Assembly: GCF_003150675.1 (NCBI RefSeq)
Contig: NZ_QGGB01000002.1
Span: forward strand, 372,001-436,000
Direction of reading: 5' to 3'
DNA length: 64,000 nucleotides
DNA from: Rhodohalobacter mucosus
GTDB taxonomy: Bacteria > Bacteroidota > Rhodothermia > Balneolales > Balneolaceae
Part shown: positions 26,560 through 54,299 of the stretch, piece after piece
Numbering within the stretch: position 1 is the stretch's first letter
Layout: each line of letters starts with the position of its first letter
Translations under genes and position numbers: made by a program
The notes under the pieces: generated by a model
The model's database searches: none
What the model saw: only the letters and a program-made list of their open reading frames with translations
Told to the model about the DNA's origin: nothing

Positions 26560-26642
26560 AGATGTACTGACATTTTTTATTATCTGATTTTGATGATTCG
26601 AACAACTGGCTACAAGGTTCCGGGTTCAGACGACAGAACGAC

Positions 26643-26691
26643 TTACCACCAACCACTGACGGCTGATGACTGAAAGCTGACAGCTGTCAGC
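26643..26691. repeat. heptamer array with a perfect 20-bp palindrome
   Basis: Seven 7-base units run in register here, of the forms TTACCAC and TGAnnGC. The final units form the perfect palindrome AAGCTGACAGCTGTCAGCTT at 26674-26693, 7 nt from the stop codon of the metalloprotease gene. There is no T-run, so a simple terminator is unlikely. Confidence 0.7.
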
Positions 26692-26700
26692 TTCAAGTCT

Positions 26701-29103: not shown

Positions 29104-29313
29104 GTTGCGCGTTGCGGGTTGTTTGTTGCATGTTGAAGGTAAAAGATTTCGATAGTCTTCTGAGATCGCAAATCACTCCAGAGACTTCGGGACCAATCTG
29201 AGATCTTCTTCTCCCGTCTCACGTTTGGCGTCCCAATACTCAATACTCAATACTCAATACTCAAAAATAAGGTACTTCTGAGATCGAATATCGCATATCA
29301 CATATCTGAGATC
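29104..29313. repeat. composite of three short-period arrays between tspO and prfC
   Basis: Array one (29104-29138) is five units of GTTGnnn. Array two (29214-29262) has seven in-register units ending in AATACTC repeated four times (29235-29262). Array three (29283-29313) is ATCnnAT-type units. The region starts 7 nt after the tspO stop and ends 6 nt before the prfC stop. The arms are not clear inverted complements of one another. Confidence 0.75.
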
Positions 29314-31722: not shown

Positions 31723-32874
31723 TTATGGAATGATGCCCATAAGCACCTTGTGAAGCGCATTAATATCTTCCTTATCATTATAGAGGTGAGGCGCCACACG
31801 GACAGCTGTACCCCTCACGGAAACGTGCACGTTTTGATCCCTGAGCCTTTCTTTCAGCAGTTCAATTGATGCATCGTCCGGAATCCGGATACCGAACATA
31901 TGAGCACCCCTCCACTCCCGGTCCTCAATTCTGAATCCATGATTTCGCCATTCTGAGATATAGTTCCTGCAAAGTTCATCACAGTATGACTGGATTTTTT
32001 CCGGTGTCCATTCCAATACCTGTTCCAGTGCAGCGGCCATCATCGGCAGTGTTACAAAGTTGCTTCTTTCACCCATGTCGAACCTGACAGCTCCCTTTTC
32101 ATATTCATCCTTGTAATTTACCAGGCCTGAAAAATCATGGCTGTTCCTTCTTGTGATCCATCCCTCCTCGAGCGGTACTCCAGTCTGAAGCCGTTTTCCG
32201 AAATAGCCCAGTGTTATTCCATATGGGCCAAATAGCCATTTATAACCGGCGCAAATCAGAGCATCGGGCTTTACAGTTTGTACATCAAAGGGCATGGCTC
32301 CCACCGACTGTGTGCCGTCAATGACAAAAAAAGCACCATTAGCCCGTGCCTTTTCCCCGATGGATTCCACGTCGAACCGTGTGCCGTCGGCCCAGTGCAC
32401 GTTGGCGAGTGCGACCAGCACTGTTTTCTCATCAATTGAGTCCAGCATATGCTGATTCCAGCTTTTCCCCCTTTGGTTGACGGGATCACGCGGGCTTACC
32501 GCAACCAACTCCCACCCACGATCATCGCAAACCCGTTCCCACGGATAGATGTTACTTGGAAACTGTTCGTGAGCGACCACTATTTTGCCATTTTTTTGAT
32601 CCGGCAAATTTGCAGCCACCGTCCCCATACCGTATGAGACGGATGGCATGATTGCGACGGATTCCGGATCAGGAGCATGTATGAGTTCCCCAAACAGCTT
32701 TCGGACACGATCGGAATCGGTAAAGAAATCGTCGGGTGTCACCTGCCAGGGTGTCCGTTTCATGCGGATCCCCCGAATCCCCGCCTCCTCCACCGATTTG
32801 AGCAGCGGCGACAAAAAAGAGCAGTTCAGGTAGTGATGGTTTTTGTCGAGATGAAATAGTGATTTGTGAGACAT
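31723..32874 (-). CDS. class V aminotransferase-fold PLP enzyme
   Basis: This 383-aa PLP enzyme of the aminotransferase V/cysteine desulfurase-like fold has the pyridoxal-binding lysine near residue 213 in ICAGYKWLFGPYG, the aspartate in FVIDGTQSVGAM, and a HEQFPSNIYPW motif near residue 94. The active-site cysteine loop of true desulfurases is not evident, so isopenicillin-N-epimerase- or kynureninase-like chemistry is as likely. Substrate unknown. Confidence 0.87.
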   Translation of the reverse strand: MSHKSLFHLDKNHHYLNCSFLSPLLKSVEEAGIRGIRMKRTPWQVTPDDFFTDSDRVRKLFGELIHAPDPESVAIMPSVSYGMGTVAANLPDQKNGKIVVAHEQFPSNIYPWERVCDDRGWELVAVSPRDPVNQRGKSWNQHMLDSIDEKTVLVALANVHWADGTRFDVESIGEKARANGAFFVIDGTQSVGAMPFDVQTVKPDALICAGYKWLFGPYGITLGYFGKRLQTGVPLEEGWITRRNSHDFSGLVNYKDEYEKGAVRFDMGERSNFVTLPMMAAALEQVLEWTPEKIQSYCDELCRNYISEWRNHGFRIEDREWRGAHMFGIRIPDDASIELLKERLRDQNVHVSVRGTAVRVAPHLYNDKEDINALHKVLMGIIP

Positions 32875-32883
32875 GGGGGACTG

Positions 32884-32916
32884 CAGGGTTCAGGGTTCAG
32901 GGTTCAGGGTTCAGGG
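32884..32916 (+). repeat. left heptamer array of S23-bearing element 1
   Basis: Four exact CAGGGTT units are followed by a partial CAGGG. The five GGG runs separated by four bases also fit a G-quadruplex motif. It begins 10 bases upstream of the aminotransferase start codon. Confidence 0.9.
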
Positions 32917-33029
32917 AAAGTTGATACCCGGATTCTCACATGCAACCATAAATTCTTTTTTGTAAGGAATTGACAAATCGCGGATCATAATAATAGAGCC
33001 TTTATAAACACCTGTTGTATTTGGATTTT

Positions 33030-33392
33030 ATGAGTTATAAAAATCTCGAAATATGGAATGATGCAAGATCACTGTCAATAGATATCCATGCACTGACACT
33101 TCTGTTGCCCAAATTTGAATTGTATGAAACGGGAAGTCAGATTCGGAGATCATCCAAATCCGTCAGATCCAATATTGTTGAAGGATATGCAAGAAGAAAG
33201 TACACAAATGATTATACAAGGTTTCTCATCTATTCTCATGCTTCACTTGATGAAACAAGAGATCATCTTGAAATCTTATGGGAAACCGGTTCCTTAAAAG
33301 ATGGTGACATTTACATTGAACTTCTTCAACGAATTGACAAATTGGGAAGTAAGATCTACCGATTTATTAAAGCCATAGAGAAAAGAAATTAA
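33030..33392 (+). CDS. four-helix-bundle protein, S23/23S-rRNA intervening-sequence family
   Basis: This is a 120-aa protein from the ATG at MSYKNLEIW; an upstream TTG at 33015 is possible. It shows the family pattern: [30 protein letters not shown], then [18 protein letters not shown]. Members form pentameric helical bundles, some encoded inside 23S rRNA intervening sequences, and are related to the Avd proteins of diversity-generating retroelements. Function is unknown. It lies between inverted heptamer arrays (32884-32916 and 33450-33519). Confidence 0.88.
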
Positions 33393-33449
33393 TATCCGAA
33401 ATAATTCAAAATTTAGTCCAAACTCAGTTCATAATTTCAGAATGACAAA

Positions 33450-33519
33450 CCCTGTGCCCTGTGCCCCGCGCCATGTACCCTGTACCCTGCGGCCTGCAGC
33501 TTGCAGCCTGCTACCTGCC
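33450..33519 (+). repeat. right heptamer array of S23-bearing element 1
   Basis: Ten consecutive 7-base units in exact register fit a loose nCCTGYn pattern, the first two being exact CCCTGTG. It is the inverted complement in type of the left array. It ends 28 bases before the stop codon of the DUF72 gene. Confidence 0.88.
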
Positions 33520-33547
33520 GCTTTAAATTTAAGCTTCATTCTTAAAA

Positions 33548-34420
33548 TCAGAAGAGTCCCAGTTGCTCATCCTTTCTCTCTGAAGGCCAGGCCGGCATGG
33601 GGGTGAGTTCAATCAGTTTGGCCAGTTCGCTGTGAAAATATCGGGCCAGGGCAGGTGCCTGGAGCGTGTCGGGAGCATGAATGAACATATAGGGATGCTT
33701 ACCCTCCCGAATCCAGTCGGCCGTGATTATGGCCCACTCTTTGAGGTAGGTTTCATTGTTGAGAATGTCGTTGGCACCTACAAAACGGATGAACGGCTTG
33801 TTTCCTGTGGTCTCAAACCGGACAGGTGTCTGTGGTTTTTTCCGCTGCGCTTCGCGGACGGATGGCTCATTTCCTGATAGGGCATGGAGCCTCCTTGTGT
33901 CGAACACAACGCGGTCTATTCCATAGCTTTTCAGCAAATCCGTTAAATGGCGCTCCTGCTTGCCCTTGTCAAAATAATCGGGATGCCGCACTTCGATGGC
34001 ATAGTGAAGGTGCACCGGAAGCATCTCCACCAACCGTTCCAGCTTATCCATTTCATTGTAGGAAAATTGAGAGCTGAGCTGAATATGAAATGGTCCCAGC
34101 TTTGTGCGAATGGGATCAAAAAGCTCCAGGAAGGATAGCACATCATCATGGACATCCTTCAGGCGCTTGTAATGGGTAATGCCCTGCGGAAATTTGAAGC
34201 AGAACTTAAAGGTATCGTCCACCTGCTCGCCCCACCGTTTTACGGTTTCGCGGGAGGGAGCACGGTAAAAAGTGGTATTTCCTTCCACCGAATTAAAAAC
34301 AGAGGCGTATTGCTTCAGAAAGTCCGCCGGCTTGGCGTTTTCCCTGAAAAAATTGCCTTTCCACTCCTTGTAGCCCCACTGAGTGAGGCCTATATGGTAT
34401 TTTTTGATCGGGTTTGACAT
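33548..34420 (-). CDS. DUF72 (YecE-like) family protein
   Basis: This is a 290-aa protein from MSNPIKKYHIG; a TTG start at 34453 would add 11 residues. It is of the DUF72/YecE TIM-barrel-like family, with IGLTQWGYKEWKG at the start, NTTFYRAPSRETVKRW, YAIEVRHPDYF and FIHAPDT motifs. Molecular function is unknown. It lies convergent to the S23-family gene. Confidence 0.9.
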   Translation of the reverse strand: MSNPIKKYHIGLTQWGYKEWKGNFFRENAKPADFLKQYASVFNSVEGNTTFYRAPSRETVKRWGEQVDDTFKFCFKFPQGITHYKRLKDVHDDVLSFLELFDPIRTKLGPFHIQLSSQFSYNEMDKLERLVEMLPVHLHYAIEVRHPDYFDKGKQERHLTDLLKSYGIDRVVFDTRRLHALSGNEPSVREAQRKKPQTPVRFETTGNKPFIRFVGANDILNNETYLKEWAIITADWIREGKHPYMFIHAPDTLQAPALARYFHSELAKLIELTPMPAWPSERKDEQLGLF

Positions 34421-34778
34421 GGCATGGCCTATCCTGTTCTCATCAAGAAACAAAATTCTGAGCTTTTTTGATCGGGTTATTGGTAGGTTTTAAATAAGAG
34501 GGATCCCGGAAGCTGCAGACAGCACGTTACAAGTACAATTAACCAGGCAATTAACAGCAAGCAGCAGGTTGCAAGCCTCAGGCAGCATAAAGGGGTTTCA
34601 AACCGTTTGCAGTTTGATTTAAACCCGCCACAGAGAAACCGGCATGTCAGCTCAAAAACAATCCTGTTATATCCCGCCGATCTCATCCCTTATCCGATGT
34701 ACCCCTTTGGCTTGATGATTACTAATCACGATATTGATAAAAGAATCCCTCAATTACCTCTGAACTGAATCTTTGCAG
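34421..34778. other. intergenic region containing a single-orientation heptamer array
   Basis: This is a 358-base divergent region between the DUF72 and MgtC/DUF4010 genes. It contains the array at 34512-34588 and a small dyad (TCAAAC/GTTTGA around 34618-34635). No promoter could be assigned. The frame at 34477-34686 (-) is a by-product of the repeat and is not called. Confidence 0.5.
34512..34588. repeat. eleven-unit heptamer array
   Basis: Eleven units in unbroken 7-base register have a loose GnnnCAn pattern, for example GCTGCAG, GCAGCAG and GTTGCAA. No complementary arm was found nearby. Confidence 0.7.
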
Positions 34779-36035
34779 ATGCAGGAAACCTATCATATAG
34801 CTCTTGAACTGCTGGTAGCTCTCTCTATCGGGCTTCTGATTGGCCTCGAACGGGGATGGAGCGGGAGAAAAGAGGAGGAGGGCGACCGGATAGCCGGCAT
34901 CCGCACCTTCAGCCTTATTGGGCTCCTGGGAGGAGTATGGGCCCTTCTTTCAATGGAGTTGAACGAATGGATTATAGCTGTCGCGTTTCTTGCCGTATCC
35001 ATCCTGATTATTGCAGCCCATATTCTGGATGTACGTGAAGACAGTGACGTCGGGGTTACAACCGCGTTTGCCATGATGCTTACATTTGCTCTATCTGCGT
35101 GGGCAATGTTCGGAAATGAACTTCTGGCATTGGGTGTCACTGTTATCGTTATGGCACTGCTGGGTTATAAGCCGGTTCTTCACAAGTGGCTCAGAAAAAT
35201 GAAAACCAGGGAGCTTTACGCCACCATCAAGCTCCTCATCATATCGGTTGTGCTGCTGCCGCTGTTGCCTGATCAGGGATACGGGCCCTGGCAGGCACTG
35301 AACCCATATTGGGTCTGGCTGATGGTTGTACTGATAACCGGCCTCTCTTTTCTTGGGTATTTTGCCATTAAAATCGGGGGGAACAAAGTCGGAACACTGG
35401 TCACCGCCATAACCGGGGGACTCGCTTCTTCTACAGCCGTTACGGTGAGCCTTGCGCAGTTTGCACGCAAATATGAGGTGAAAATTTTGTTTATGGGCGG
35501 AGTCATGATTGCTTCCTCCATCATGTTTGTGCGAGTGATGATAGAAGTGGCCGTTGTTAACCCTGAACTGTTAAACAGTCTCTGGATTCCCGTTTCCATC
35601 ATGTTTACAGGCATGGTTGCAGGCGGTTGGTGGCTTTGGAGATTCACGCCTGACAAAAACGGATTGGAAAAAAAGCTGGACCTGAAGAACCCGTTTCAAA
35701 TTACTACTGCCCTTAAGTTCGGGGCACTTCTTGCTCTTATACTAATGCTTTCGGAAGGCATGCAGGAGTGGTTTGGCGACGAAGGTGTTTACCTGCTGTC
35801 GATCGCATCCGGATTGATGGACGTGGACGCAATCACTCTCTCGCTTTCTAAAATGGCAAACGATGACCTGAGCCACAGCGTAGCAGTTTTAGGAATTATT
35901 CTTGCCGCCGCCACCAATACAATTGTTAAGGGCGCCATCTTTGCCTTCTATGTAGGGGTGAAAGAGAGCCTCAGATTAATCGTTTTGATTATACTGGTTG
36001 CGGCTGCGGGTATTACAAGTGCGCTCATTTTATGA
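34779..36035 (+). CDS. MgtC/SapB and DUF4010 membrane protein
   Basis: This is a 418-aa integral membrane protein (ATG 34779; TTG 34773 adds two codons). The N-terminal part is MgtC/SapB-like (SIGLLIGLERGW near residue 18, GIRTFSLIGLLGG near residue 44). The C-terminal part is a DUF4010 domain with GGLASSTAVTVSLA and SGLMDVDAITLSL. Function is unknown; MgtC relatives affect Mg2+ homeostasis. It is co-directional with the symporter gene 94 nt downstream. Confidence 0.9.
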   Translation: MQETYHIALELLVALSIGLLIGLERGWSGRKEEEGDRIAGIRTFSLIGLLGGVWALLSMELNEWIIAVAFLAVSILIIAAHILDVREDSDVGVTTAFAMMLTFALSAWAMFGNELLALGVTVIVMALLGYKPVLHKWLRKMKTRELYATIKLLIISVVLLPLLPDQGYGPWQALNPYWVWLMVVLITGLSFLGYFAIKIGGNKVGTLVTAITGGLASSTAVTVSLAQFARKYEVKILFMGGVMIASSIMFVRVMIEVAVVNPELLNSLWIPVSIMFTGMVAGGWWLWRFTPDKNGLEKKLDLKNPFQITTALKFGALLALILMLSEGMQEWFGDEGVYLLSIASGLMDVDAITLSLSKMANDDLSHSVAVLGIILAAATNTIVKGAIFAFYVGVKESLRLIVLIILVAAAGITSALIL

Positions 36036-36129
36036 TCACCTATTTACTTTTTTCAAAATTTGCTTTTCCCTCCCGTTCTGCTAACTTCGCTTCAATTCGA
36101 TCCATTTCTGAAAACTCAATCATTGCTCA

Positions 36130-37842
36130 ATGCCCTTTACCTGGCTCGACTACACCGTAATCGCCGGCTATGTGCTGCTGATGGTGATTGTAGGGTACAT
36201 TGCACAAAAACGGGGACAGGAAACTCTTGAAGATTATTTCACGAGCGGCAAAAACCTTCCCTGGTGGCTCATCGGTATTTCGATGGTGGCCACCACCTTT
36301 GCGGCCGATACTCCCCTGGCCGTCACGGGCATCGTGGCCAGCGAGGGTATCGCCGGGAACTGGATCTGGTGGAACTTTATGTTCTCGGGTCTGATTACCG
36401 TTTTCCTTTACGCTAAGCTCTGGAAACGGGCCGATGTGATTACCGATGTAGAGTTTATCTCCATTCGCTATTCAGGTAAACCGGCTCGTATTCTCCGCGG
36501 ATTCCGGTCGCTCTATCTCGCCTTTCCCATTAACTGTATAATCCTGGGATGGGTTACGGTTGGGATGGCCAAAATCCTGACCGTGATCACAGGTGCCGAA
36601 CAGTGGATGATTATTCTGATTCTCTATTTATTGATTGGACTATACATCTCCATGTCGGGCCTCTGGGGTGTGATTATCACCGATTTTGTGCAGTTTATCA
36701 TTGCGATGGGCGGCTCCATCCTGCTCGCCTGGTATGCTGTGGATCACGTGGGTGGCCTGGATCAGCTGCAAGCGGGACTGAACGAACTGTTCGGTGAGGG
36801 GCATTCGGTTCTCTCCATCAATCCGCTCACCAGTCCCGAGATCGCACTGGCAACCGGGCTGGTTTGGGTAGGCATGATGTGGTGGGCCTCATGGTACCCG
36901 GGATCGGAACCCGGCGGAGGCGGTTATATCGCCCAGCGAATGTTTTCCGCCAAAGATGAGAAAAACGCAGTAGGCGGGACACTGCTGTTCAATGTGGCCC
37001 ATTTTGCACTGCGGCCGTGGCCCTGGATTCTGGTCGCCCTGGTGGCGATGATTGTCTATCCCAATCTGGATGATCCTGAAACCGGCTATCCCCTGCTGAT
37101 GCTGGAGTTGCTCCCAGCCGGGCTCCTGGGTCTGCTGGCCGTGGCATTTTTGGCGGCATTTGTCTCCACAGTCTCCACACATCTCAATTGGGGCGCCTCA
37201 TATGTGGTAAACGACTTTTACAAGCCATTCATCAAACAGGAGTACAAGTTTGAAACGAAGGAAGAGGCGCAGAACCACTATGTGAAAGTGTCGCGCTGGA
37301 CCACGTTGTTGATCATGGCGGTGGCCATACTGGTGTCCTACCTGTTTGACACGGTTCGCGGCGGATGGGAGGCGATTCTCTCCATAGGCGCCGGCACCGG
37401 ACTGGTGTACATGCTGCGCTGGTTCTGGTGGCGCATCAATGCATGGAGCGAGATTGCAGCGATGACGGCGGCCGCGGTTGGCTTTACTCTCACAAAGATC
37501 CTTGGCTATGACGATTTTGCCGAACAGATGATCTTCACCACCATTTTTGCCACGATTGTCTGGATTGCGGCTACGCTGTTCACACAGCCCACCGACGAAA
37601 AGACCCTGCAGAGTTTCTTTGACAGGGTAAAGCCAGGAGGGCCCGGATGGAAACGGTTTTTGGCTGCCGGCGAGGAGACCTATTCCCTGCTTCCGGGGAT
37701 ATTGTTTGCTGCTATCAGTGCGGCTTCGATTATTATCCTGCTATTCGGAATGGGAGAGATTTTCTTTGGATCGATGATGCTAGGCCTGGGATGCTTTGCT
37801 GCCGGCACGGGAGGGCTTTGGTTTGTGGTTAGAAAAATATAG
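36130..37842 (+). CDS. sodium:solute symporter (SSF) family protein
   Basis: This 570-aa protein has about 13-14 membrane helices of the LeuT-fold SSS family, with FTSGKNLPWWLIGISMVATTFAAD near the start and GGGYIAQRMFSAKDEKNA near residue 260. The EDYFTSGKNLPWW motif matches the family signature. The solute cannot be told from sequence. An array of GTCAGAC-type heptamers begins 11 nt after its stop. Confidence 0.93.
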   Translation: MPFTWLDYTVIAGYVLLMVIVGYIAQKRGQETLEDYFTSGKNLPWWLIGISMVATTFAADTPLAVTGIVASEGIAGNWIWWNFMFSGLITVFLYAKLWKRADVITDVEFISIRYSGKPARILRGFRSLYLAFPINCIILGWVTVGMAKILTVITGAEQWMIILILYLLIGLYISMSGLWGVIITDFVQFIIAMGGSILLAWYAVDHVGGLDQLQAGLNELFGEGHSVLSINPLTSPEIALATGLVWVGMMWWASWYPGSEPGGGGYIAQRMFSAKDEKNAVGGTLLFNVAHFALRPWPWILVALVAMIVYPNLDDPETGYPLLMLELLPAGLLGLLAVAFLAAFVSTVSTHLNWGASYVVNDFYKPFIKQEYKFETKEEAQNHYVKVSRWTTLLIMAVAILVSYLFDTVRGGWEAILSIGAGTGLVYMLRWFWWRINAWSEIAAMTAAAVGFTLTKILGYDDFAEQMIFTTIFATIVWIAATLFTQPTDEKTLQSFFDRVKPGGPGWKRFLAAGEETYSLLPGILFAAISAASIIILLFGMGEIFFGSMMLGLGCFAAGTGGLWFVVRKI

Positions 37843-37853
37843 GATTCAAAGGT

Positions 37854-37895
37854 GGGAGATGGCAAGAGTCAGACGTCAAACGTGAGACGTCAGAC
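37854..37895 (+). repeat. left heptamer array of S23-bearing element 2
   Basis: Six in-register units run from 37854. The four at 37868-37895 are clear GTCAGAC/GTCAAAC/GTGAGAC-type repeats, and the first two are degenerate. Confidence 0.85.
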
Positions 37896-37915
37896 GAGAG
37901 CTTCATAGCTTGATG

Positions 37916-38269
37916 TTATTGTGTATACATGAATCTGCTAATAAGAGCGAACACATAGTTTATCTTTTCATTTAGTTCCTCTAATTCATCTCTTCTAAGA
38001 TATTCGAGTTCGATTACGGTCTCAATTTGTGCATCCAGCTCTACAAGCGATGATCGGGCGATCTCATAAAATCGAATTCTTTCATTCTTTGATTTTCTGG
38101 CAGACCCTTCACTCAGATTCGATGAAATCGATATGGCAGCCCTGCGCATTTGATTAGTTAAACCATACTTTTCATGGTTTGGAAAATGCTCTGTGGTTAA
38201 ATAGATCAACTTTGTGAGCTGAATACTCTCTCTGTATACCCTCAGATTTTTGTGTTTTAAATCAAGCAT
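37916..38269 (-). CDS. four-helix-bundle protein, S23/23S-rRNA intervening-sequence family
   Basis: This is a 117-aa protein from MLDLKHKNL; a TTG at 38281 would add four residues. It has the full family pattern: NLRVYRESIQLTKLIY, FPNHEKYGLTNQMRRAAISI, NLSEGSARKSKNER and ARSSLVELDAQIE. Its closest comparison in the window is the protein at 33030-33392; they share family motifs but little identity. It lies inside inverted heptamer arrays. Function is unknown. Confidence 0.9.
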   Translation of the reverse strand: MLDLKHKNLRVYRESIQLTKLIYLTTEHFPNHEKYGLTNQMRRAAISISSNLSEGSARKSKNERIRFYEIARSSLVELDAQIETVIELEYLRRDELEELNEKINYVFALISRFMYTQ

Positions 38270-38337
38270 GTATCGATGCAATTAAACCCTACTATAAGTA
38301 GGATCGAATTTTCCCCAATCCCTTACAAGAAAAGTGC

Positions 38338-38364
38338 ATCACCCGTTTGACGTTTGACATCAGC
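38338..38364 (+). repeat. right heptamer array of S23-bearing element 2
   Basis: Two exact GTTTGAC units (38345-38351 and 38352-38358) are flanked by degenerate units. They are the inverted complement of GTCAAAC in the left array at 37875-37881. Confidence 0.85.
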
Positions 38365-38440
38365 GCAGCGATTCATCTGCAAGAAAAATTGTACCAGAAA
38401 ATATCATCGACTTTCTCTTACTCATTTAGTAGAATTGAGT

Positions 38441-39223
38441 ATGAACCGCCTTATTCCGGTCATATCGATACTCCTTTTGTTCATCCTTCAGGGTTGCGTG
38501 GTGCATATGCCCGCCAGTGAGTCGGTGATCTGGCACGATAACCAGAATGAGGAGGAGACGGATCCGTACGGAGTGGAAACTTTCCTTCAGGTACCGGTGG
38601 CGGGAACCTCAATCTCCTATAGTGCCATGATTCTACCGCAGGGTATACGGGATAAGATACGCCGGCAAAACGGCGATGACCTGCAGCCCGGCGAGGAGAT
38701 CGTTTTCAAGAACATGTTTCTGCCCGGCAACTTTATGCCTTCGGTAGCTTTTCCCCTCACAAACCGGTCGGCGCTGGGTGTCAACATCAACCCTTTCTAT
38801 CCCGGGCTGGACGGTACGTTTCACCTGTTCGGCGACAACTGGCTTACGACTACGTTTCAGTTCCCGGTTTACAACGGAATCGATTTTGAATGGATCCTGC
38901 AGCGCCCGGTGATCCGGGTCAATCATGGTGGTTTATCAGCCGGAATATTCTATCGAAAAGAGCGCATTGCCTACTATATTGATGATGACGGTACTGAAGC
39001 TCCCGGCCTGTTTGAATTGGTTCCCAACACTTTTCGAAGCGATTGGTTCGGAGCCCGTCTGGCCGGACAGTTTCCCGATATGTCGCAAACCCGCCGGATG
39101 AAATTCCATTTTCATGCCGGGTACAATCCCGACTACCGGTCCGCACTATTCATGTTTGGAATCGGGATCACGTTTCGTCCAAATCCCGGCCCTTCGTATG
39201 TGGATCCGGTTCGATACTGGTGA
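38441..39223 (+). CDS. lipoprotein of unknown function
   Basis: This 260-aa protein from MNRLIPVISILL has a lipobox (LQGC near residue 18). The longer frame from 38354 adds 29 unlikely residues encoded partly by the repeat element. The rest looks like beta-strand surface or barrel segments (for example FHLFGDNWLTTTFQFPVYNG, FGIGITFRPN). I recognise no family. The stop codon abuts the inverted repeat at 39224. Confidence 0.7.
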   Translation: MNRLIPVISILLLFILQGCVVHMPASESVIWHDNQNEEETDPYGVETFLQVPVAGTSISYSAMILPQGIRDKIRRQNGDDLQPGEEIVFKNMFLPGNFMPSVAFPLTNRSALGVNINPFYPGLDGTFHLFGDNWLTTTFQFPVYNGIDFEWILQRPVIRVNHGGLSAGIFYRKERIAYYIDDDGTEAPGLFELVPNTFRSDWFGARLAGQFPDMSQTRRMKFHFHAGYNPDYRSALFMFGIGITFRPNPGPSYVDPVRYW

Positions 39224-39451
39224 TCACCGCGGAGTCGCGAAGGCCGCAGAGTAAGGAATGCTTAAAATTAGATGATCACATCTTATTAGTTCAGGAGCCT
39301 ATTTAGAGTCAGTATAACCACCCCTGTCCTCCGTACGAGACTTCGGAAGGCGGGCCCGGCCCCTCTTTAAAAAGGAGGGGAGTTTTTCCACCCCTTAATC
39401 AACTACCGCATCCAATAATCATCCTCCGCGGCCTTCGCGCCTCTGCGGTGA
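39224..39451. repeat. long inverted repeat pair (TCACCGC type) enclosing a hairpin
   Basis: The left arm 39224-39251 and right arm 39424-39451 match in inverted orientation at 25 of 28 positions. Between them, CCCCTCTTT and AAAGGAGGGG (39360-39380) form a second hairpin followed by TTTTT. The right arm covers the last codons and stop of the hydrolase gene, so the repeat encodes part of a protein. Confidence 0.85.
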
Positions 39452-40465
39452 ACCCGGCGAATGCGCCAGTGCCGGAATGAGCTCGGATTCGAGGTACCGG
39501 AAGAGTTCCCGCTGGTAGCCTCGGCCTCGGCTGGTCATCAGGTTGGAGGTCATAACGATCACGGTGTCGATTTCAGGCAGCATCATGATATACTGGCCGC
39601 CATGGCCCCATGCAAAGACAATCTCATAGCCGTTTACCGGCCGGCGCCACCACATGTAGCCAAAATCATACGGATTGAAGTTACTACGGGTGTACACCTC
39701 CACCGACTCCAGTATCCATTGAGCGGGTACGATCCGGCGGCCGTTGTACTCGCCCAGGTTCATCATCATGCGTCCGATCTTGAGCATATCGGCGGGCCGC
39801 ATCGCCATATTGTTGCCGCCCATGTAGTATCCCTGCGGGTCACGGTCCCAGCCTCCAAGCTCCATGCCCATCGGCTCAAAGAGGTACCGGTTGGCAAACG
39901 TGCGTGTGCTCATGCCGCTGGCTTTGGTAAGAATCACCGATAGCAGATGCGATGTTCCGGTACTGTATACCATGCGTCCGCCCGGCCGGGCCACCAGATC
40001 ACGGGATAGCGCATACTCCACCCAGTTGCTGCTCACAACCCAGCGGCCGTAGTTGCGGATACTGGTTGATTCGAGCCCGGCCCTCATGGTGAGCAGATCA
40101 CGGATCGTGATTGACTCCTTTACAGAGTCCGGATTGGCTTCAAAAAACTCCGGGAAATACTGTCCGATGGGTTCATTTACGCTTTCGATATACCCCTCTT
40201 CAATCGCAATGCCAATAAGCAGAGAGAGGATACTTTTGGAAGCCGATTTGATGTTTGTAGACCGGTTGGGGTTCATTCGACCGCGAAAGTCCTGGTGAAT
40301 GATCTCTCCTTCACGCTCTATCATGATACTTTCCACAGATCCGATGTCGAAAACACGGTCGGCGACTGCCGGCAGTGCATCACCGTTTTCCGGTTGTGCG
40401 AAGGCTGAATCTGCTGCAGCCAGCATCATGAAAAAAACTAAAAAACCAATATGTTTAAACTGCAC
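39419..40465 (-). CDS. serine beta-lactamase-like hydrolase (class C fold)
   Basis: This is a 348-aa protein from a GTG at 40465, which gives a clean signal peptide ending DSAFAQ; a GTG at 40540 adds 25 residues. It has penicillin-recognition motifs: SxxK at S74-K77 (SASK), tyrosine motif YSTGTS and a C-terminal HGGQ in place of KTG. Such proteins are often esterases or peptidases rather than antibiotic resistance enzymes. The C-terminus (GSPQRREGRGG) is encoded by an inverted repeat. Confidence 0.88.
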   Translation of the reverse strand: MQFKHIGFLVFFMMLAAADSAFAQPENGDALPAVADRVFDIGSVESIMIEREGEIIHQDFRGRMNPNRSTNIKSASKSILSLLIGIAIEEGYIESVNEPIGQYFPEFFEANPDSVKESITIRDLLTMRAGLESTSIRNYGRWVVSSNWVEYALSRDLVARPGGRMVYSTGTSHLLSVILTKASGMSTRTFANRYLFEPMGMELGGWDRDPQGYYMGGNNMAMRPADMLKIGRMMMNLGEYNGRRIVPAQWILESVEVYTRSNFNPYDFGYMWWRRPVNGYEIVFAWGHGGQYIMMLPEIDTVIVMTSNLMTSRGRGYQRELFRYLESELIPALAHSPGSPQRREGRGG

Positions 40466-49245: not shown

Positions 49246-49262
49246 GTCTTTCAGTAGTTTTC

Positions 49263-49332
49263 AGCTGTCAGCTTTCAGCTATCAGCTATCAGCCTGCCTT
49301 CTCTGACGGCTGAAGCCTGAAAGCTGATTGCT
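49263..49332. repeat. 70-bp inverted heptamer array (permease gap)
   Basis: Ten units stay in exact 7-base register. The first five fit AGCTnTC; the last four (GACGGCT, GAAGCCT, GAAAGCT, GATTGCT) are the inverted complement. It fills most of the gap between the permease stop and the ATPase start. Confidence 0.9.
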
Positions 49333-54226: not shown

Positions 54227-54229
54227 TTT

Positions 54230-54299
54230 GTTAGTTGTTGGTTGTTGGTTGTTGATCGAGGCCAGCTGCAACCAACAACTGACCACATACAACTATCCG
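54230..54299. repeat. 70-bp inverted heptamer array (permease gap)
   Basis: Ten units in exact register: GTTAGTT and two exact GTTGGTT units on one side, CCAACAA, CTGACCA and CATACAA on the other. On the transcribed strand TTGTTGGTTG and CAACCAACAA can form a perfect 10-bp stem. It starts 2 nt after the previous stop codon and ends 3 nt before the next ATG. Confidence 0.9.

What the first reader, a model, noticed from the sequence alone, without database searches (positions are those of the whole stretch)
37854..38364. Second S23-family element with exact complementary heptamers
The left array has GTCAAAC at 37875-37881; the right array has GTTTGAC twice at 38345-38358, its exact inverted complement. 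The enclosed protein belongs to the same family as in element 1 but is quite different in sequence. Two independent cases in one 64-kb window make chance less likely, and the different heptamers point to conserved design rather than one copied repeat.
Basis: seen in the sequence. Interest (0 to 1): 0.8.

Follow-up and report, generated by a model that had tools for sequence, protein, structure and literature searches.

The report
Mobile S23 gene between heptamer arrays
A small bacterial gene of the S23 family sits between two mirror-image arrays of 7-base repeats, and comparison across about 150 such elements shows that the two arrays match each other and move with the gene as one roughly half-kilobase unit, which makes this a free-living relative of the insertions long known inside bacterial ribosomal RNA genes.

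Summary
At 37858-38364 a PF05635 (S23/23S-IVP, four-helix-bundle) gene on the minus strand lies between inward-facing heptamer arrays (GTCAGAC GTCAAAC GTGAGAC GTCAGAC; GTTTGAC x2). In this genome, 14 elements give a left/right inverted match of 18.6 against 10.4±0.8 for permuted pairs (P≤5e-5). Across 150 elements it is 19.7 against 10.0±0.2. Random placements and control small ORFs show essentially none. At orthologous sites in different species the arms tend to change together. The arms travel with the gene. The window's element recurs array-to-array (86% identity) on the other side of a neighbouring gene in a relative. Nostocalean plasmids with 90-98% identical flanks give filled and empty sites where the empty site has no heptamers; two sites show a clear 5-bp target duplication and one a probable one. 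S23 is under purifying selection (dN/dS 0.03-0.16). Matching is mostly shared heptamer class, not exact mirror order, and shows no G·U bias, so RNA pairing alone does not explain it. Best reading: an intergenic counterpart of the 23S rRNA intervening sequence (IVS). S23 binding to the arrays is inferred; the recombinase is unknown.

The parts
37858..37895 (+). Left heptamer array (lies 3' of the S23 gene), C-poor strand reading towards the gene: GATGGCA AGA, then GTCAGAC GTCAAAC GTGAGAC GTCAGAC
   Evidence: Read; TRF period 7; homology with L095 reaches into this array and no further
37916..38269 (-). S23 / 23S-IVP / four-helix-bundle protein gene, 117 aa
   Evidence: PF05635 E 3.2e-32; TIGR02436; PDB 2gsc E 5.9e-26; dN/dS 0.08 against L095 copy
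38270..38337 (-). Leader between right array and start codon, with TTGTAAG (38322-38328, minus strand); the motif occurs within 150 nt upstream of the ATG in 39 of 104 elements of the genus against 0.9 expected
   Evidence: promoter role inferred
38338..38364 (-). Right heptamer array (5' of the S23 gene): ATCACCC GTTTGAC GTTTGAC ATCAGC on the + strand
   Evidence: homology with L095 ends here
37858..38364 (-). Whole element, array to array; 86% identical over 37868-38361 in L095 at a different neighbouring position
36130..37842 (+). Left neighbour: sodium/solute-symporter-like gene (context, not part of the element); its spacer carries no S23 element in the four relatives whose downstream sequence was printed
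38441..39223 (+). Right neighbour: probable outer-membrane protein gene (context); in L095 the element lies on its other side
32884..33518 (+). Element 1 of the window, same design: array CAGGGTT 32884-32916, S23 gene 33030-33392, array CCCTGTG.. 33450-33518

Best explanation
This is a free-standing, IVS-type mobile element. Its two ends are inward-facing tandem heptamer arrays of one class; its only gene encodes an S23-family four-helix-bundle protein. Shown: the arms match within an element and tend to change together at orthologous sites; arms plus gene occur at new positions as one unit; in cyanobacterial relatives the unit enters heptamer-free spacers beside stop or start codons and leaves a ~5-bp target duplication; S23 is under purifying selection. 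Inferred: the S23 oligomer (the homologue 2gsc is an assembly of five four-helix bundles) binds the heptamers as repeated sites at both ends and brings the ends together, while a host or trans-acting enzyme makes the staggered cut. Shared binding, plus occasional copying of one arm from the other through a hairpin (as the 32-nt exact mirror in L167 suggests), keeps the two arms in the same class. ORF-less array pairs are probably deletion derivatives or non-autonomous relatives.
For: Co-variation: 150 elements 19.7 vs 9.97 sd 0.23 permuted; own genome P<=5e-5, random placements reach 16 in 0.22%, control small ORFs 0/55; period 7 (lag-7 identity 0.50, lag-14 0.46, other lags 0.25-0.32). Concerted change at orthologous loci: within-species L-R 21.5 vs between-species 18.1, 21 pairs up and 7 down. 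Unit movement: L002/L095 86% array to array with the element on the other side of the OMP gene, element dS 0.73 vs 1.38 for the neighbouring OMP gene; L102 carries three copies among pilin genes, two of them 99.3% identical with different flanks; L158/L160 89% in adjacent spacers, with the first spacer empty in G004. Filled/empty plasmid sites: L293 vs L301/L309 (98% flanks, TSD GTAAT), L303/L305/L307 vs L294/L304/L310 (TSD TTCTA), L294 vs L304/L306 (TAATG/TTATG, one mismatch); no heptamers in the empty sites. Selection: dN/dS 0.03-0.16. Arrays face inward: 14 (+-) vs 0 (-+) among adjacent arrays.
Against: No recombinase is encoded in the element. No reverse transcriptase was found in the own genome, and Y1 transposases are absent from three Patescibacteria-type genomes whose loci carry S23 elements. 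Heptamer class is uncorrelated with S23 sequence below ~50% protein identity, so a protein-DNA recognition code is not demonstrated. Array density does not track S23 copy number across the genus. Most S23 elements compared are orthologous between species, so movement is infrequent. No target duplication could be read for the window's own element, and other plasmid sites (1, 4, 5, 6) gave no clean duplication.
Confidence: 0.6

Rival explanations
1. RNA device: the arms are kept complementary by selection for a transcript hairpin (RNase III processing site, mRNA stabiliser or terminator), as in the 23S rRNA IVS; mobility is incidental.
For: The Coxiella IVS has tandem heptamers and a terminal stem and is cut by RNase III (PMC4990558). 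The window element folds with its ends paired, z -2.5. Arrays sit between co-oriented genes in many loci.
Against: Mismatches between arms show no excess of sense-strand G.U pairs (126 vs 120 for the opposite type, 401 transversions); unit order is only weakly mirrored. The wobble test has limited power because arms are often out of register.
Confidence: 0.18
2. Arms belong to the site, not to the element: S23 genes drop into the loops of pre-existing heptamer hairpins, which are widespread in this genome.
For: In G022 the spacer orthologous to the L167 site holds the same heptamer class without an S23 gene; G015 and G027 hold hairpins of other classes there. 55 period-7 arrays were counted in 456 kb of the own contig, mostly far from S23 genes.
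Against: Plasmid empty sites with 90-98% identical flanks contain no heptamers; arms are conserved with the gene between unrelated positions.
Confidence: 0.1
3. Passenger model: an ordinary DDE-type transposase acting in trans mobilises any DNA between these terminal inverted repeats, and S23 is cargo or a regulator.
For: Terminal inverted arrays plus ~5-bp duplications resemble transposon ends; ORF-less versions resemble MITEs.
Against: Each element has its own heptamer class, unlike the fixed ends of a transposase family. S23 is the recurrent gene and is under purifying selection, and the same design holds from Patescibacteria to cyanobacterial plasmids. No genome-wide survey of transposase families was made.
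Confidence: 0.1
4. Chance or plain replication slippage making tandem heptamers independently on both sides.
For: Array unit numbers do vary as slippage predicts (visible in the arms listed).
Against: Inverted match in 73% of elements against 0.22% of random placements and 0 of 55 control ORFs.
Confidence: 0.02

Closest known systems
23S rRNA intervening sequence (IVS) with S23p ORF, e.g. Coxiella burnetii (PMC4990558)
   Same: S23-family ORF; tandem heptamers upstream of the ORF (GACAGAT in Coxiella); terminal inverted repeats forming a stem; 428-444 nt; suggested earlier to be mobile
   Different: Located between protein genes, not in 23S rRNA (no LSU rRNA match in 40 loci); many per genome; S23 under purifying selection rather than decaying; heptamers on both sides and co-varying
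Avd protein of diversity-generating retroelements
   Same: Same four-helix-bundle superfamily (weak match to NF033474; homology noted in PMC10053308)
   Different: Below the Avd cut-off (27.3 vs 80 bits); no reverse transcriptase found in the own genome
Heptamer repeat arrays: TAACTGA of Beggiatoaceae (PMC4679880), STRRs of heterocystous cyanobacteria (own knowledge)
   Same: Tandem, mostly intergenic heptamers with a genome-wide vocabulary
   Different: Those reports describe direct repeats; the PMC4679880 text has no mention of S23 or intervening sequences
REP/REPIN elements with RAYT transposase; MITEs
   Same: Small, intergenic, inverted-repeat units with many ORF-less copies
   Different: Arms are heptamer arrays of element-specific class; the associated gene is S23, not a Y1 transposase

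Membership tests
23S rRNA IVS | S23/IVP-family ORF inside the element | tested here: met
   PF05635 E 3.2e-32
23S rRNA IVS | Terminal inverted repeats able to form a stem | tested here: met
23S rRNA IVS | Tandem heptamers next to the ORF (reported for Coxiella) | tested here: met
   PMC4990558
23S rRNA IVS | Insertion in a helix of 23S rRNA | tested here: not met
   Lies between two protein genes; no Rfam match in window 32000-40000
23S rRNA IVS | Excision from transcript by RNase III | not testable with these tools
   needs RNA experiments
DGR / Avd | Avd equivalog score above cut-off | tested here: not met
   27.3 bits against cut-off 80
DGR / Avd | Reverse transcriptase in the genome | tested here: not met
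   PF00078 no match in G000
TIR transposon / MITE | Terminal inverted repeats | tested here: met
TIR transposon / MITE | Target-site duplication of fixed length | tested here: inconclusive
   5 bp at two plasmid sites and about 5 bp with one mismatch at a third; four other sites unclear; not readable for the window element
TIR transposon / MITE | Cognate transposase | not tested
   none in the element; trans-acting families other than PF00078 and PF01797 not surveyed
REP / RAYT | Y1 transposase as partner gene | tested here: not met
   No Y1_Tnp in G029-G031, the genomes of S23 loci L133, L135 and L145

The most novel reading that the evidence does not exclude
S23/IVP proteins are the mobility proteins of a very widespread class of minimal transposable element whose ends are arrays of a short repeat that each element re-templates for itself, so that ends stay matched while the repeat sequence drifts. 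The rRNA IVSs, S23 genes in CRISPR-cas loci, and part of the intergenic heptamer arrays of Bacteroidota-like and cyanobacterial genomes would all be products of this one system.
Probability: 0.33. Interest if true: 0.87.

Novelty: new variant of a known kind. Interest (0 to 1): 0.7.

Why it matters
'Four helix bundle protein' (S23/IVP) is a common unexplained annotation; how the rRNA IVS arises and moves has been unclear for over 30 years. Finding that S23 genes in many phyla sit in discrete units with matched heptamer ends, with filled/empty sites and target duplications on cyanobacterial plasmids, makes the question directly testable (binding assay, mobilisation assay). It also offers one explanation for several separate oddities: S23 genes inside cas operons, intergenic heptamer arrays, and repeat-encoded prepilin leaders or signal peptides in Patescibacteria.

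Tried and rejected
Slippage or chance: rejected by permutation, random-placement and control-ORF tests. RNA stem as sole cause of arm matching: no G.U asymmetry and weak unit-order mirroring, but low power, so kept as a rival. Protein-heptamer recognition code: similarity of heptamers follows protein identity only above ~50% (global rho 0.085, permutation sd 0.048); this equals co-inheritance and proves no recognition. RT or Y1 transposase as constant partner: not constant. S23 copy number driving array density: not supported. GKSARAM-superclass arrays as a marker of one S23 subfamily across the genus: counts vary 0-283 per genome with no clear link to the subfamily. Empty site for the window's element within its genus: spacers too diverged; L095 was informative instead. 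Rfam gave nothing for window 32000-40000. DNA search of plasmids and protein search of phages found no match. Literature searches found no report of heptamer-flanked S23 elements outside rRNA, but only open-access papers are held and one query failed.

Full report
WHAT IS THERE. Window 37858-38364 contains a 117-aa S23 (PF05635; TIGR02436) gene on the minus strand (37916-38269) between two heptamer arrays. Left, on the + strand: GTCAGAC GTCAAAC GTGAGAC GTCAGAC (37868-37895). Right: GTTTGAC GTTTGAC (38345-38358). The element fills most of the spacer between a symporter gene (ends 37842) and a probable outer-membrane protein gene (starts 38441). The genome holds 15 PF05635 matches, one of them below the family cut-off. 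The genome is probably Balneolota, inferred only from the nearest named homologue L097.

IS IT MORE THAN CHANCE. For each S23 gene I aligned 250 nt upstream with the reverse complement of 200 nt downstream. In this genome (14 elements) the mean score is 18.57, against 10.42 (sd 0.83) when right arms are permuted, P<=5e-5; for 12 of 14 the own right arm is the best. Across 150 elements from many phyla the mean is 19.7 against 9.97 (sd 0.23; maximum of 5000 permutations 11.67); 110 of 150 reach 16. On the own contig 0.22% of 2223 random placements and none of 55 control small ORFs reach 16. The arms have period 7: identity at lag 7 is 0.50 and at lag 14 is 0.46, against 0.25-0.32 at other lags. 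An independent set, eight cyanobacterial plasmid loci found afterwards, gave 27-32 for five and an exact 15/15 match for a sixth. The window's element alone scores only 14, so by itself it would not convince.

WHAT CO-VARIES. Mostly the heptamer class: shuffling the order of units in one arm lowers the match only slightly (mean z 0.48, se 0.16). Some elements are exact mirrors, e.g. L167, 32 nt including an irregular 8-nt unit. Orthologous elements in different species (non-Flavobacterium, 36 pairs) keep a better match within an element (21.5) than between species (18.1), 21 pairs against 7; the lowest-identity pairs in that list may not be true orthologues, and pairs are not independent. Mismatches show no sense-strand G.U preference (126 vs 120). 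Hence RNA pairing is not shown to be what maintains the match, though the test is weak where arms are out of register.

THE UNIT MOVES. (1) L095, a contig labelled Desulfobacteraceae but syntenic with the window at 77-79% DNA identity, holds the same element, 86% identical exactly from array to array, on the other side of the OMP gene; the symporter-OMP spacer there lacks it. Synonymous divergence is 0.73 for S23 and 1.38 for the OMP gene. (2) In a Patescibacteria contig (L102) three copies lie among pilin genes; two are 99.3% identical including arms, with different flanks. (3) L158 and L160 (89%) occupy adjacent spacers of a conserved gene block in two species; a third species has no S23 gene in either. 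(4) In cyanobacterial plasmids the same spacers occur with and without the element. Site 2: empty AAAAAGTAATTAACAAATA (L301, L309; ~98% identical flanks), filled AAAAAGTAAT|AAATCAGAATTCAG...S23...TTCTTCTTT|GTAATTAACAAATA (L293), duplication GTAAT. Site 3a: empty GGTTCTAGGTTATG, filled GGTTCTA|AATCAGGAGTCAG...S23...CTTCTGGA|TTCTAGTTATG (L303; similar in L305, L307), duplication TTCTA. Site 3b: GAGGTAATGGGATTTG against GAGGTAATG|TTAGGGG...|TATGGGATTTG, about 5 bp with one mismatch. The empty sites have no heptamers, so the arms came with the gene. Sites 1, 4, 5 and 6 gave no clean duplication.

THE GENE IS USED. dN/dS is 0.03-0.16 in nine pairs with measurable divergence. A TTGTAAG motif precedes the start codon in 39 of 104 elements of the genus against 0.9 expected, perhaps a promoter. 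Solved homologues are 2gsc (E 5.9e-26) and 2rld; 2gsc was published as an assembly of five four-helix bundles (reference listed in PMC10053308).

SURROUNDINGS. On 456 kb of the own contig period-7 arrays are 12 per 100 kb against at most 0.9 for any other period tested apart from its multiple 14. Most are far from any S23 gene. Adjacent arrays face inward (14) and never outward (0). ORF-less pairs may have matching or different classes. At the L167 site other species carry the same class without S23 (G022) or hairpins of other classes (G015, G027). Related S23-bearing genomes have far fewer arrays (1-3 per 100 kb; G019, with one S23 gene, and E. coli none in the stretches sampled), so arrays are not a simple function of S23 number.

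MECHANISM. Shown: matched ends, movement as a unit, target duplication in relatives, selection on S23. Inferred: S23 binds the arrays and joins the ends; catalysis in trans by an unknown enzyme; arms kept alike by common recognition and occasional hairpin-templated copying. The own genome lacks a reverse transcriptase and Y1 transposases are absent from three genomes (G029-G031) of S23-bearing loci, so neither is a constant partner.

KNOWN RELATIVES. The Coxiella IVS has the same parts - S23 ORF, tandem heptamers GACAGAT, 28-bp terminal stem - but sits in 23S rRNA and its ORF decays; Ralph and McClelland (1993, cited there) already proposed mobility (PMC4990558). The present element fails the location criterion, so it works like an IVS but is not an rRNA IVS. 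No literature found in the held library describes co-varying heptamer ends or intergenic S23 units.

Noticed in passing
L102 2850-5450; L135; L141; L106; L110: In Patescibacteria-type loci the S23 stop codon overlaps the start (ATGA) of the next gene or lies beside it, and the right heptamer array encodes that protein's N-terminus: prepilin leader MKVKKIRNTRYEIRDT (L102), signal-peptide-like MKFFRSIILFSTFYFLLS and MKPKIFAFLFSIFYFLFS (L135, L141).
   Followed up: partly
L296 (Anabaena sp. 90 pANA02), L311 (Picosynechococcus 7003): S23 elements sit between cas6 and cas4 and between cas10 and a cmr3-type gene; S23 in cas loci, reported in PMC3936711 as an associated function, may simply be insertions.
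   Followed up: partly
window 29104-29313, 26638-26692, 49256-49293, 54228-54254: Heptamer arrays without S23 gene, of several classes (GATNNNN-like, AGTATTG, TCAGCTA, TTGTTGG).
   Followed up: partly
L095 (JAABSQ010000285.1): Contig labelled Desulfobacteraceae MAG is syntenic with this window at 77-79% DNA identity: probably a mis-binned contig.
   Followed up: no
window 39230-39450 and L095 flanks: Another inverted repeat family built on CGCAGAG with variable linkers surrounds the L095 element and occurs in the window without it.
   Followed up: no
L097, L130, L131, L136: Some elements appear to have arms of period 8 or irregular period instead of 7.
   Followed up: no
L012, L014 (own genome): Two S23 paralogues (72.6% DNA identity over 595 bp) whose flanks carry GAAACAGA/AACCGA-type repeats rather than clean heptamers, with long direct rather than inverted flank similarity in L012.
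   Followed up: no
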